DNA of 64,000 nucleotides, from the NCBI GenBank assembly GCA_947178505.1, contig CAMWYR010000003.1:1-64000 (forward strand), in the 5' to 3' direction. Position 1 is the first letter of the stretch. Every line of letters begins with the position of its first letter. The stretch is from an uncultured Muribaculaceae bacterium (GTDB lineage: Bacteria > Bacteroidota > Bacteroidia > Bacteroidales > Muribaculaceae). Shown here in pieces: positions 54,691-58,949 of the stretch. Below the pieces are notes generated by a model. The model was not told the DNA's origin. It worked only from the letters and a program-made list of their open reading frames with translations, and ran no database searches. Made by a program: the position numbers and the translations under genes.

Positions 54691-55974
54691 TCAGCGTGTG
54701 CCGTCGGCGCCATACGACTCCATCAGTTCAAGCCAGTAGGAGCGCAGGGTTGACCAGGCCACATTTTCCGGACCGTTGACCATAGGGGATATCTTACAGC
54801 CGTTCAACTGCATCGACACGTATGGTGTGTCAGATGGCCCACGACTGACGATCATAAGCAGATTTGCTCCCAAGGGAGTTATATCCTGAACCCTCCAGGT
54901 ATTGCTCAGCGAGTCGTAGTCGTGCGGGAAAGCAAAGCATCCCGGGAGCCTGATGAGCGAGAAGAGAGGGAGCAGGGTCTCGGCATGGCCGAAATAGGCA
55001 TTCATCACCGGGCTCTGCGACGGGAATGTGAGGGCATGGTCGGTGGCCTCTATGATCTCATTCACGAGCGGAGCGGCCGTGCGTGCGGCGAGATTCGAGA
55101 GGGGAGTGATGGCATTACGCAGGTAATGATTCAGATTGGAGGCCTCCCAGCAGCCGCGATATTCATCCACCGACATCCAGCGCGTAGTCGGGGCATTATA
55201 ACCCATCGAGCGGTTAGCCTGGAGCACGCCGTACATATCCATCGTCAGGTTGCGCAACTCCACATCCGACAAGCCGGTCTTCGAGAAGAGGCTGCGCGCC
55301 GGCCTGACAGAAACGTGGCGGGCAACGAAGTCATCATAGACCCCCTTCCAGTCGCCACTCTTACGGTATTCATCAACCTGCTTATTCTCAGCAAAACCAC
55401 GCAGAAGATGATCGTAGCGCGGTCCTTCCGCCGTTGCGACCTCAACGTGATGATTCTCCCAGGCAAACTGATAGAGAAGCTGATACATAGTCATTACGCA
55501 TCGGGGCACGTAGGTCGATACAGCCTCTACCTTCACATTCCTGTGCATCAGCCGCGGAAATGCCCTCAGGAGGCGCGTTCCCATCATTTTCTGCTCCATC
55601 TCACCGACCGGAGAAAGGGCGCCCCAATTGGAGGCATTTAAGGCGCGCACGCTCTTGAGATATGATAGGAAAGCCTTGCCATGCTCGGAAAGAGTATGAC
55701 TTTTCTCTGCCTCGTCAAGTGCCTTCTGCAAAGCCGCGATTTTCTTCGGGCCCGAAAGATAGCGGGCGCCGTGACGCGAAATATAGACGGCATACACCGG
55801 ATGCAACGTGTCGGGCAATTCATACGGAGCCGTGAATGTCGCGAAATCAATAGGCATCATCGAACCGTCGTATTCGGTCGGGAGAGGCTCATATTTCTCC
55901 TCCGCCTTCAGCGGAGTCGCCGGAACGACTCCCAGCAGGCAGATTATCAGGGATAGGAAAAGGGGGTTGCGCAT
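54691..55974 (-). CDS. Secreted histidine-type phosphatase, MINPP/phytase-like
   Basis: This 427-residue protein has a signal peptide (MRNPLFLSLIICLLGVVPATPLKA) and the branch 2 histidine acid phosphatase active-site motif SRHGARY (about residue 70). The HAE motif YFGHAETLLPL near residue 320 serves as the proton-donor region, as in multiple inositol polyphosphate phosphatases. It could release phosphate from phytate or other phosphomonoesters in the periplasm or outside. Other histidine phosphatase substrates are possible. Its start is 20 bases from the MITE-like element. Confidence 0.82.
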   Translation of the reverse strand: MRNPLFLSLIICLLGVVPATPLKAEEKYEPLPTEYDGSMMPIDFATFTAPYELPDTLHPVYAVYISRHGARYLSGPKKIAALQKALDEAEKSHTLSEHGKAFLSYLKSVRALNASNWGALSPVGEMEQKMMGTRLLRAFPRLMHRNVKVEAVSTYVPRCVMTMYQLLYQFAWENHHVEVATAEGPRYDHLLRGFAENKQVDEYRKSGDWKGVYDDFVARHVSVRPARSLFSKTGLSDVELRNLTMDMYGVLQANRSMGYNAPTTRWMSVDEYRGCWEASNLNHYLRNAITPLSNLAARTAAPLVNEIIEATDHALTFPSQSPVMNAYFGHAETLLPLFSLIRLPGCFAFPHDYDSLSNTWRVQDITPLGANLLMIVSRGPSDTPYVSMQLNGCKISPMVNGPENVAWSTLRSYWLELMESYGADGTR

Positions 55975-55997
55975 AGAGATCGGTTAGGTAAAACTTA

Positions 55998-56330
55998 GAC
56001 TCCATCCAATAAAAAATATTAAATGCAGGGCGGGCTCTTTTTGAGCTAAAATCTTGAATCTCTGAGGGAGCAGCCTTCGAGCTGTGACCGAAGAGATTCG
56101 AGATTTAAGCCAAAAAGAGGCCGGACGCAGGTAACTTTATTTTATTAGTACGAGCCATTATATTTAAATTGATTAAAATTAAAGTTTTTAAATTACTCCA
56201 TTCATCGCATCTCAGGGGCACATATCGCCTTTTGCCTCAGTCACATAGCACGCTATGCTCCTTCGTCTGCAAGACGATATCTGCTCCCTGAGATGCGACC
56301 CTGCATTAATATTTTTTATTGGATGGAGTC
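55998..56330. mobile_element. MITE-like non-coding element with long terminal inverted repeats
   Basis: The ends are inverted repeats of about 32 bases (55998-56030 and 56299-56330) starting GACTCCATCCAATAAAAA, with one indel. A direct TTA flanks both ends (55995-55997, 56331-56333), consistent with a 3-bp target duplication. Inside, there are two large imperfect hairpins (56033-56122; 56206-56297, the latter with a 12-bp perfect base CGCATCTCAGGG and an apical CATAGC/GCTATG stem). No ORF is present. It sits between the lipoprotein stop and the phosphatase start. Confidence 0.7.
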
Positions 56331-56759
56331 TTAATACTTACGGCAGGTTATGACCGCGATGGGAGAGCGGAGCACCATCCTCGACGATGACACATGCTCA
56401 ATATCGAGGATGCAATATTTAGTGCCGGGGGCTGAAGAAGCGTCAGCTACGAAGCCATATTGCGCCAACTGCGCGTCTGTAGGATTATAACGGAAATCTG
56501 CCCCTATCTGTGCGTCACCCTTATGATAATTGAGCACTGCCGTTAGCTCCGGACCGGGACTTCCCATGTTGAGTTGAAGCAGTTCGAGCTGGATGCCTAT
56601 GTAGCGGTTAGGGGGATTCACAACGGAATTATCTGTTGTGTAACGGATTTCGGTGATTTTCCAGAAACCGTCGATTTTACCGTTGTCGGAGGCACGCCGG
56701 CATGCCGGAGCGGCAATAAACAACAGGGAAAGCAGCAATATAGCGATGTATTTTTTCAT
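56331..56759 (-). CDS. Hypothetical lipoprotein
   Basis: This 142-residue protein has a lipoprotein signal peptide with lipobox IAAPAC at about residues 15-20. A small beta-rich domain follows (FWKITEIRYTT; YIGIQLELLQLNM) and then a C-terminal strand region. A lipocalin-like fold is possible, but not claimed. It starts 22 bases after the Wzi-family stop and ends exactly at the MITE-like element; its TAA is the TTA duplication read on the minus strand. Confidence 0.7.
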   Translation of the reverse strand: MKKYIAILLLSLLFIAAPACRRASDNGKIDGFWKITEIRYTTDNSVVNPPNRYIGIQLELLQLNMGSPGPELTAVLNYHKGDAQIGADFRYNPTDAQLAQYGFVADASSAPGTKYCILDIEHVSSSRMVLRSPIAVITCRKY

Positions 56760-56781
56760 TTTTCAATAATTAGATGGAGAG

Positions 56782-58269
56782 TTATTTAATCCAGCCGGTC
56801 TTAGAGATAGCGAGCTGCACGCCGAAAGAGTTGCCGAGGAGCTTACCGTGGTCCATGCCGAGCGACACCGAGGCATTCCAGCCGGGAAGCGACTGTGGAT
56901 GCCAGTTCACCTGAGCCAGCCAGCTGAAATTCTCTTCCGGATGGGGGAGAGGCAATGTATAGGAACCCCAGCTTCGCATCCACGTCACAAGCAGGCGGTA
57001 GTCGGTCTGGCGCGAGGGAGTGCCCTTTATGCCGAAATGATGAGAGATCAGACGGTTATGAAGGAAGTGCAGCCTGTGATTGTCATTATAGACAGGAGAG
57101 ATGAATAGGGGTGAGCCAATAGCCTGGCCCCAGTTCTGCCAGCCGTTATAGATGTAATGATTGTAATAGGAATCGCGGGCTGAGATCTGATAGTCAATCA
57201 CGGAAGTATGGTCCCAGTAGCAGGGTCCGGCCTGATCTTTCGAATAGAAGAATTCATAGAGGATATCCGAGACGAACGGATTTGCCGGGAGCTTTCCCTG
57301 CACGCCGTAGAGGCCATCCTTCCAGGGATAATCAAAGAAGAGCATCGAGTGATCTTCAAAGAAGTGCTGATAATAGAGGCGCACCATCCAGCCCGAGGGG
57401 TCCTGCCATTTAAGGCTCATGCTCCAGTTGCCGAGGAAGTTGCCTTCTACATTTGTCTGCTCTCCGGGAGCGGTGTCGGTGCCTCCGGCAGTCGGGATGA
57501 AGGCCTTGGCCCAGGCTTTCAGATAGGTAGGATGCTTTTCCCAATAACCTTCTCTGTTGCCCTCAGCCGGAATCCACGTCTTACCGCCGAACTGCGTATC
57601 CATCACGAGGCCCAGTTCTCCTTCAAGCGGAAATTTCTTCGCGTTACCGCCGCGGAAATATATCGCACGCGAGCAATAGAGCGTGTTGAGCGAATAGCGA
57701 TAATCGGGATTTGCCCAGCGGTTTAGCCACCAGTTGTCGTCAAACATACCATATGCGATATGGCCCTTGACGGCGAACATCTCCTTACAACCCCACACGT
57801 CGGCATAATCAAAAATGCCGATGCGCACCTGCGGAAGAGGACGGGCATTCCATCCCTGTGTGAGCGAACCGGAGGAAAGCGACTGATCAAGGAAACCGTC
57901 GGAGAGTTCCTTCGCGCCGATCATAGCGTCGAGACAACGGTAACGCACCTCGGCATAAAGCTGCTGCGGAATGAAAGTTGACTGCATGCGGTGAGCCACA
58001 CCGAGATCTACTCCGGCGCCCCAGGAGAAACGGGGCGCTTCATCAATATGCTTGAACGCTCCGACACGAAGCCAGAGATTATTGCGCTCAAGCCCGGAGA
58101 AGCCGTATTTATTAGACTGAAGCCAGAAAGGAGTGTGCGCGCCGCCCGAAAGCGTAGTGCCCACCTCTGCTTTATACTCAATGGAGTCGTGCCATTCATA
58201 AGCACGTGCCTCCACAAACGGAAGAAGGCAAGCCAAAGCAGCAACACAGGCGAATTTGCGAATGCTCAT
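56782..58269 (-). CDS. Wzi-family capsule assembly outer-membrane protein
   Basis: This 495-residue protein has a signal peptide (MSIRKFACVAALACLLPFVEARA) and the Wzi-like start YKAEVGTTLSGGAHTPFWLQSNKYG. Repeated aromatic beta-strand segments follow over the whole length, as for an 18-strand barrel. Such proteins attach or assemble capsule at the cell surface. A probable promoter lies directly upstream, and the lipoprotein gene follows 22 bases downstream. Confidence 0.82.
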   Translation of the reverse strand: MSIRKFACVAALACLLPFVEARAYEWHDSIEYKAEVGTTLSGGAHTPFWLQSNKYGFSGLERNNLWLRVGAFKHIDEAPRFSWGAGVDLGVAHRMQSTFIPQQLYAEVRYRCLDAMIGAKELSDGFLDQSLSSGSLTQGWNARPLPQVRIGIFDYADVWGCKEMFAVKGHIAYGMFDDNWWLNRWANPDYRYSLNTLYCSRAIYFRGGNAKKFPLEGELGLVMDTQFGGKTWIPAEGNREGYWEKHPTYLKAWAKAFIPTAGGTDTAPGEQTNVEGNFLGNWSMSLKWQDPSGWMVRLYYQHFFEDHSMLFFDYPWKDGLYGVQGKLPANPFVSDILYEFFYSKDQAGPCYWDHTSVIDYQISARDSYYNHYIYNGWQNWGQAIGSPLFISPVYNDNHRLHFLHNRLISHHFGIKGTPSRQTDYRLLVTWMRSWGSYTLPLPHPEENFSWLAQVNWHPQSLPGWNASVSLGMDHGKLLGNSFGVQLAISKTGWIK

Positions 58270-58447: not shown

Positions 58448-58522
58448 GGCCCATTCGTCTATCGGTTAGGACGCAAGATTTTCATTCTTGAAAGAGGAGT
58501 TCGATTCTCCTATGGGCTACCA
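58448..58522 (+). tRNA. tRNA-Glu (anticodon UUC), copy 1
   Basis: The acceptor stem GGCCCAT (58448-58454) pairs with ATGGGCT (58512-58518, one G-U pair). The anticodon stem CAAGA/TCTTG encloses TTTTCAT with anticodon TTC. The T arm GAGGAGTTCGATTCTCC is canonical. The CCA end is encoded (58520-58522). Confidence 0.95.
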
Positions 58523-58551
58523 AATATCAATCGAAAAAGAAATTTTTAAAG

Positions 58552-58806
58552 ATGGCAAATCATAAATCGTCATTAAAAAGAATTCGCCAGGCGGAAAAGC
58601 GCAGACTTGAGAACCGTTACTGGGCAAAAACAGCAAGAAATGCAGTGCGTCGCATACGCAAGATGACCGACAAGGCTGAAGCTGAGGCAGCTTACAACAA
58701 GGTTAGCTCTCTCCTCCAGCGTCTTGGTCGCAAGAACATCATTTCTAAGAATAAGGCTGCCAATCTCTGCAGTGGTCTCGCTAACCACATCAACAAGCTT
58801 GGCTAA
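58552..58806 (+). CDS. rpsT: 30S ribosomal protein S20
   Basis: This 84-residue basic protein begins [18 protein letters not shown] and has the three-helix, lysine/arginine-rich pattern of S20, ending [18 protein letters not shown]. It binds 16S rRNA in the 30S subunit. It lies between two identical tRNA-Glu genes, 29 bases after the first, and should be co-transcribed from the promoter upstream of it. Confidence 0.96.
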
Positions 58807-58856
58807 AAAATATTAGGCAGTTTCACGGTCGTCACGCGTCCGGAAGCAGTCAGGCC

Positions 58857-58928
58857 GGCCCATTCGTCTATCGGTTAGGACGCAAGATTTTCATTCTTGA
58901 AAGAGGAGTTCGATTCTCCTATGGGCTA
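58857..58928 (+). tRNA. tRNA-Glu (anticodon UUC), copy 2
   Basis: The 72-base body is identical to copy 1 (58448-58519). Here CCC follows the discriminator A, so the CCA end is not encoded and must be added. It lies 50 bases after the rpsT stop. Confidence 0.95.
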
Positions 58929-58949
58929 CCCAAATCCATCCTACCCCGT

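What the first reader, a model, noticed from the sequence alone, without database searches (positions are those of the whole stretch)
55995..56333. 333-bp MITE-like element with 32-bp inverted ends, TTA duplication and nested hairpins
The ends are near-perfect inverted repeats starting GACTCCATCC, direct TTA copies flank it, and the inside folds into two large stem-loops with no ORF. The right TTA doubles as the stop codon of the lipoprotein, so insertion kept the gene intact. The conserved secondary structure is more elaborate than a passive MITE needs and may act as an RNA element or terminator.
Basis: seen in the sequence. Interest (0 to 1): 0.6.

Follow-up and report, generated by a model that had tools for sequence, protein, structure and literature searches.

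The report
Hairpin-ended IS5-derived miniature transposon
The 333-base element is a real mobile miniature transposon, the gene-less offspring of an IS5-family insertion sequence, and evolution has kept a large folded hairpin at each of its two ends by matching base changes, so the fold itself does a job that is not yet known.

Summary
Window 55998-56330 is a 333-bp MITE with 26-bp perfect inverted ends, TTA on both sides and two giant hairpins. It has three more near-identical copies in its genome. Six relatives keep the surrounding genes, and the two read closely (L190, L191) lack the insert. The insertion sits on the lipoprotein's stop codon and regenerates it.

I found the parent: ~1.26-1.28 kb IS5-family elements (L063, L064; 263-codon transposase frame, NF033580) in the same genus. 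They carry the same ends and the same two hairpins, and 410-897-bp deletion forms link IS to MITE.

The unusual part is the hairpins. Across 44 ends of each type, 97.7% and 96.2% of pair cells pair, and 19/32 and 20/26 pairs carry double compensatory changes, far above controls. At both ends only the inward-reading strand is favoured: G-U exceeds A-C about 12:1 and 5:1 in a strand-blind, cluster-weighted count. The tips share a motif, GGAG-stem-loop-stem-YGAC. A structure model finds the type-A hairpin in 76 of 111 same-genus genomes. Rfam has no match.

Gene-less MITEs keep the hairpins, so regulating their own transposase cannot be the whole function. I favour a cis-acting RNA fold formed by transcripts entering from either flank; single-stranded DNA in transposition is the main rival.

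The parts
55998..56330 (.). 333-bp non-autonomous IS5-type element (MITE)
   Evidence: three further copies at 98-100% in the genome; same ends and hairpins as 1259/1281-bp autonomous elements L063, L064
55995..55997 (.). left copy of target triplet TTA
   Evidence: TNA on both sides in many other copies
56331..56333 (.). right copy of target triplet TTA; reverse complement TAA is the stop codon of the lipoprotein gene
   Evidence: relatives without the insert
55998..56022 (+). left terminal inverted repeat (B end)
   Evidence: perfect complement of the right end; homologous to GACCCCATCCCACAAAAAATGTTAA of the parent IS
56306..56330 (-). right terminal inverted repeat (A end)
56031..56123 (+). 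B-type hairpin, favoured fold on the strand that reads inward from the left end
   Evidence: alignment A2: 20 of 26 pairs with double compensatory change, 96.2% of cells paired
56067..56088 (+). tip motif GGAGC-stem-loop-stem-GTGAC of the B hairpin
   Evidence: near-invariant columns in alignment A2
56205..56298 (-). A-type hairpin, favoured fold on the strand that reads inward from the right end
   Evidence: alignment A1: 19 of 32 pairs with double compensatory change, 97.7% of cells paired; covariance model hit 56196-56306 (-), E 5e-23
56240..56261 (-). tip motif GGAGC-ATAG-CGTG-CTAT-GTGAC of the A hairpin
56130..56137 (+). inner sequence GGTAACTT that follows the B hairpin; a similar GGTAAYTT/GGAGTAATT follows the A hairpin
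   Evidence: read from the sequences; not tested separately
56331..56759 (-). host gene: lipoprotein with lipocalin-like domain (PF16585), insertion at its stop codon
54691..55974 (-). host gene downstream: histidine phosphatase superfamily branch 2 (PF00328); the element ends 23 bp before its start codon

Best explanation
Identity (shown): a non-autonomous deletion derivative of an IS5-family insertion sequence. It inserted into a TNA triplet at the stop codon of the lipoprotein gene, between two genes of an operon, and duplicated the triplet so that the stop codon survived. It can only be moved in trans by an IS5-type transposase (inferred). Mechanism (inferred, about 0.4 on its own): each end carries, inside the inverted repeat, a hairpin kept by selection on the strand that reads inward from that end. 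Any transcript that runs into the element from a flanking gene, in either orientation, therefore meets one correctly oriented folded hairpin first. The fold most likely acts as a cis RNA element that ends, processes or caps the incoming host transcript. That insulates the element and makes insertions just behind genes tolerable.
For: Multi-copy, 98-100% identical. Parent IS with transposase NF033580 at 142.5 bits against a 110 cut-off and PF01609, same ends and hairpins. Deletion series 410-897 bp, with transposase remnants in several. Orthologous genes without the insert. Covariation: paired cells 97.7% vs 84.5 +/- 0.6 shuffled and at most 49% slid; covariation score 0.416 vs 0.173 +/- 0.009; B hairpin 96.2% vs 75.2 and 0.623 vs 0.241. 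Strand bias: inward strand folds better in 44/44 and 43/43 ends; strand-blind, cluster-weighted G-U:A-C 34.8:2.9 and 21.2:4.0; 9 of 9 sequence clusters at each end. Unpaired inward-strand bases are about 79% and 77% purine. Most loops read YNNG by eye. MITEs with no gene keep both hairpins, with a few compensatory changes inside one MITE lineage. Insertions lie exactly on a gene's stop codon in 9 of 48 cases vs 5.5% of intergenic TAA/TTA sites in the window, P = 0.001. In co-directional contexts the A end faces incoming transcription 20 to 8.
Against: No transcript data. No intrinsic terminator signature. G-T wobble is also tolerated in single-stranded DNA, so the strand bias does not by itself prove RNA; a C-to-T mutational bias on one strand is not excluded. 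An IS5 element of the same family in genome G249 shows no tip-motif hairpins, so such hairpins are not needed for IS5 transposition in general. Stop-codon enrichment is modest and its null comes from one 64-kb window. Target triplets on the two sides differ in their middle base in 12 of the 37 copies with T[A/T]A on both sides.
Confidence: 0.5

Rival explanations
1. The hairpins work as DNA: during replication or strand exchange the strand whose 5' end is the element end folds, and the transposase (or a host factor) recognises tip motif plus inverted repeat plus the inner GGTAACTT at each end.
For: Same arrangement, inward, at both ends in every well-formed two-ended element; retained in MITEs, which need only cis signals for mobility; total MITE length held at 329-335 bp in most of 33 aligned copies although interiors are only 35-60% alike between groups.
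Against: A cruciform would need both strands, yet only one is favoured. DDE transposases of the IS5 type are not known to need hairpins (general knowledge), and an IS5 element in G249 shows none.
Confidence: 0.3
2. The hairpins control transposase expression, by blocking read-through into the gene or as antisense/5' UTR structures, and the MITE merely inherited them.
For: The A hairpin lies upstream of the transposase gene in the sense strand in L063 and L064; precedents ISPpu9 (PMC8450116) and IS200 (cited in PMC3196728).
Against: The favoured strand of the B hairpin is antisense to the transposase; MITEs without a gene still show 97-99% paired cells within one lineage and a few compensatory changes.
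Confidence: 0.15
3. Passive MITE whose hairpins are only a leftover of an ancestral perfect inverted repeat.
For: Ordinary MITEs also fold strongly (PMC10969869).
Against: Compensatory double changes far above shuffles and a one-strand wobble excess do not arise from decay of a palindrome.
Confidence: 0.05

Closest known systems
IS5-family insertion sequences (TNA-type target, as in the IS1031 group)
   Same: Parent transposase passes NF033580; inverted ends; 3-bp TNA target triplet.
   Different: Parent carries a ~95-nt covarying hairpin inside each inverted repeat; no such feature is known to me for IS5.
Porphyromonas gingivalis MITEs (MITE239, MITE464, BrickBuilt; PMC4596501)
   Same: IS5-type inverted ends, MITEs in Bacteroidales.
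   Different: BrickBuilt contains a 23-nt tandem array and TIR GAGACCTTCGCA; the window element has neither.
Correia (NEMIS) and ERIC elements (reviewed in PMC10969869)
   Same: Short inverted-repeat elements whose transcripts fold; RNase processing of transcripts with Correia or ERIC elements has been reported.
   Different: Not derived from this IS; there the fold is largely the inverted repeat itself (own knowledge), here two separate structured hairpins with a shared tip motif.
REP/REPIN palindromes (GTAG and CGTC super-families, PMC3733652)
   Same: Dispersed hairpins, possibly active as single strands.
   Different: REPs are 20-40 bp with an unpaired tag, and GTAG types are linked to tyrosine transposases; here 333 bp, inverted ends and a DDE transposase parent.
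IS200 and ISPpu9 regulatory hairpins
   Same: IS-encoded RNA structures that act on incoming or transposase transcripts.
   Different: Different transposase types; as far as I know not mirrored at both ends nor kept in gene-less derivatives.

Membership tests
MITE (IS-derived non-autonomous element) | short, no transposase ORF | tested here: met
   333 bp, no ORF of 80 aa or more inside it
MITE (IS-derived non-autonomous element) | inverted ends shared with an autonomous IS | tested here: met
   L063, L064
MITE (IS-derived non-autonomous element) | target-site duplication and empty site | tested here: met
   TTA/TTA; operon without insert in L190, L191
MITE (IS-derived non-autonomous element) | several copies in the genome | tested here: met
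   4 near-identical copies including this one, plus diverged cousins
MITE (IS-derived non-autonomous element) | mobilised in trans by the parent transposase | not testable with these tools
   no intact parent found in the own assembly, only remnants
IS5 family (parent element) | transposase family | tested here: met
   NF033580 142.5 bits, cut-off 110; PF01609
IS5 family (parent element) | 3-bp TNA target duplication (IS1031 group) | tested here: inconclusive
   TTA/TTA in L063, TGA/TGA in L064; identical on both sides in 26 of 52, T[A/T]A with different middle base in 12
IS5 family (parent element) | assignment to a subgroup by comparison with reference IS sequences | not tested
   no ISfinder library at hand
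Known structured RNA family (Rfam 15) | covariance-model match at gathering score | tested here: not met
Intrinsic terminator | GC stem followed by T run | tested here: not met
   0 sites in 55800-56800
BrickBuilt MITE | 23-nt tandem repeat core | tested here: not met
   no direct repeats
REP/REPIN | 20-40 bp palindrome with unpaired GTAG/CGTC tag | tested here: not met
   333-bp element with inverted ends and IS5 parent
Correia/NEMIS-type RNA-processed element | RNase III cleavage of the transcript | not testable with these tools
   needs RNA experiments

The most novel reading that the evidence does not exclude
A class of structured RNA that is part of a DDE transposon: two related hairpins with a common GGAG/YGAC tip, mirrored at the two ends and kept through changes of inverted-repeat sequence in several Bacteroidales genera. 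Transcripts entering from either side form it, a protein recognises it, and so the transposon carries its own portable gene end or mobility signal, needed in cis even by gene-less derivatives.
Probability: 0.3. Interest if true: 0.75.

Novelty: new variant of a known kind. Interest (0 to 1): 0.55.

Why it matters
MITEs are usually treated as passive leftovers. Here the leftover and its parent share a two-ended structure under clear selection, with a strand preference that makes a precise prediction (inward RNA or inward single-stranded DNA). The type-A hairpin is found in 76 of 111 genomes of the genus, so it is a common, so far unlisted feature of these bacteria and a ready test case for whether RNA structure serves DNA transposition or host tolerance. 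It also gives a ready covariance model for annotating such elements.

Tried and rejected
Intrinsic terminator (none). Known RNA family (only sub-threshold microRNA-like chance hits). Chance palindrome. Single-copy conserved locus (refuted). Strict tip pattern across the phylum (own genome and one other; the phylum draw held few members of the order). Concatenated empty-site query: only two candidates per genome were scored, so it settled just the L064 site, and the exact junction there is too diverged to read base by base. Public genome scan with the L063 transposase found only its own source, a MAG named 'uncultured Bacteroidales bacterium RUG14134'. Viral contig pattern scan gave 24 hits that were not followed. 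Literature searches found no description of this element in the papers held.

Full report
Observation. The element occupies window 55998-56330 (333 bp) with TTA on each side. Its ends are perfect inverted repeats over 26 bp and about 33 bp at 97% with one gap. The whole folds at -155.7 kcal/mol against -77.5 +/- 5.4 for shuffled sequence, through two internal hairpins. No ORF of 80 aa or more lies inside. The right TTA is the TAA stop codon of a 142-aa lipocalin-like lipoprotein. The left end stops 23 bp before the start codon of a histidine phosphatase gene.

It is mobile. The own genome (2.27 Mb, 80 contigs) has three more copies at 98-100% identity, and diverged cousins on C2, C50 and C58. 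In the genus, 42 of 111 genomes have sequence matches at E <= 1e-6. The phosphatase search gave six relatives that keep the gene order with the lipoprotein upstream. In the two read closely, L190 and L191, the lipoprotein stop codon is followed within a few dozen bases by the phosphatase start, with no insert. The insertion therefore hit the stop codon and duplicated it. For the parent element L064, a related locus without the insert was found in G105.

Parent. Several cousins keep pieces of a DDE transposase. Two intact elements were then found: L063 (1259 bp, TTA/TTA) and L064 (1281 bp, TGA/TGA), each with a 263-codon transposase frame. The L063 protein scores 142.5 bits to NF033580, an IS5 family transposase (cut-off 110), and matches PF01609. 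Their ends (GACCCCATCCCACAAAAAATGTTAACGCAGGGG) are homologous to the MITE ends, and they carry the same two hairpins. Intermediates of 410-897 bp, several with transposase remnants, connect the two forms. No intact transposase of this type was found in the own assembly. What moves the MITE there now is unknown, and collapsed repeats in a draft assembly are a possible reason.

Anatomy. Of 52 elements with both ends collected, those with well-formed ends have one A-type end (upstream of the transposase in the IS) and one B-type end. Reading inward from either end: the inverted repeat, then GCAGGG or similar, a hairpin of about 95 nt, then GGTAAYTT. Both hairpins end in the same kind of tip: GGAG, a 5-6 bp stem, a short loop that mostly reads YNNG, the stem again, and YGAC. 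GGAG/YGAC would form a tandem G-A internal loop. The stem letters differ between subfamilies and between the two ends of one element. One element, L029, is a 159-bp palindrome with a single hairpin. A transposon in G345, a different genus of the family, has wholly different inverted repeats (GAGCTTGTTTAATAATAAATG) but the same two inward hairpins. In G487, transposase remnants lie between the two inward hairpins.

Selection on structure. In alignment A1 (44 A ends), 19 of 32 pairs have double compensatory changes; in A2 (44 B ends), 20 of 26. With controls, paired cells are 97.7% against 84.5 +/- 0.6 in shuffles and at most 49% when slid; covariation score 0.416 against 0.173 +/- 0.009. For B: 96.2% against 75.2, and 0.623 against 0.241. 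The shuffle control does not correct for relatedness; the slid control does, but favours a structure derived from these sequences. Both agree by a wide margin.

Strand. A palindrome has two strands that can fold. G-U pairs on one strand are C-A mismatches on the other, so their ratio tells which strand is favoured. The inward strand folds better in 44 of 44 A ends and 43 of 43 B ends. With pairs chosen by Watson-Crick matching only, which treats both strands alike, and with clusters weighted equally, G-U to A-C is 34.8 to 2.9 (A) and 21.2 to 4.0 (B). All 9 clusters at each end agree, although that count used pairs predicted on the inward strand. Unpaired inward bases are about 79% and 77% purine, as is common in structured RNA. 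The working strand is thus inward at both ends: sense to the transposase at A, antisense at B.

What this says about function. The MITEs have no gene, yet keep both hairpins almost fully paired within one lineage, with a few compensatory changes. Regulation of the element's own transposase cannot be the only reason. Left are cis functions: a fold in transcripts that enter from outside (RNA), or a fold in single-stranded DNA used for mobility. I prefer RNA: the element often sits right behind genes, exactly on a stop codon in 9 of 48 cases where 5.5% is expected. All four TNA triplets are stop codons on one strand or the other, so such insertions keep the gene. The loops and purine bias also fit RNA. 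Against it, there is no transcript evidence, no intrinsic terminator, and G-T wobbles are tolerated in DNA too. The near-constant length of 329-335 bp in most of 33 aligned MITEs, despite unlike interiors, is a point for a DNA-level constraint.

Distribution. The A-hairpin covariance model hits 76 of 111 genomes of the genus at E <= 1e-5, with up to 32 matches per genome, and 11 of 393 genomes drawn from the order. The order hits include strong ones in two other genera of the family and weak ones in other families. Several of the weak hits sit in single-hairpin elements of about 190-200 bp with other inverted repeats; these weak hits were not validated further. An IS5 element in G249 shows no tip-motif hairpins.

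Open points. The triplets on the two sides differ in their middle base in 12 of the 37 copies with T[A/T]A on both sides, so the 3-bp duplication is well supported for this locus and for L063 and L064, but is statistically weak across the set. Mechanism is inferred throughout.

Noticed in passing
L116, L118, L119, L255-L304 (genomes G012, G030, G071, G014; one copy in G000 C49:11720): A ~45-bp repeat (AATTGAAAATCGACGAGTTTCC-n-ATGACGAGTCAA; 24 copies in G012, 18 in G030) sits in the arms of GGAG/YGAC hairpins of several families: strict tip motif nearby in 21 of 52 copies vs 10 of 2000 random windows. It looks like a tiny repeat that targets these hairpins.
   Followed up: partly
L029 1502-1660: 159-bp element with perfect inverted ends that is a single giant palindrome holding one A-type hairpin; seemingly a minimal version.
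   Followed up: no
L164, L173, L166, L163, L161: About 190-200-bp single-hairpin inverted-repeat elements with other ends (e.g. GAATCTGTTTAAATTTTATT) in other Bacteroidales genomes, with a similar tip around CGGG.
   Followed up: partly
L168 around 1501-1660: Two GGCGC/GGAGC-type hairpin tips close together, possibly an array of such hairpins.
   Followed up: no
window 58448-58930: Two tRNA-Glu(ttc) genes flank an 84-aa ORF that looks like ribosomal protein S20 (product name from own knowledge).
   Followed up: no
L226-L249: 24 viral contigs carry an exact match to the tip pattern; not examined.
   Followed up: no
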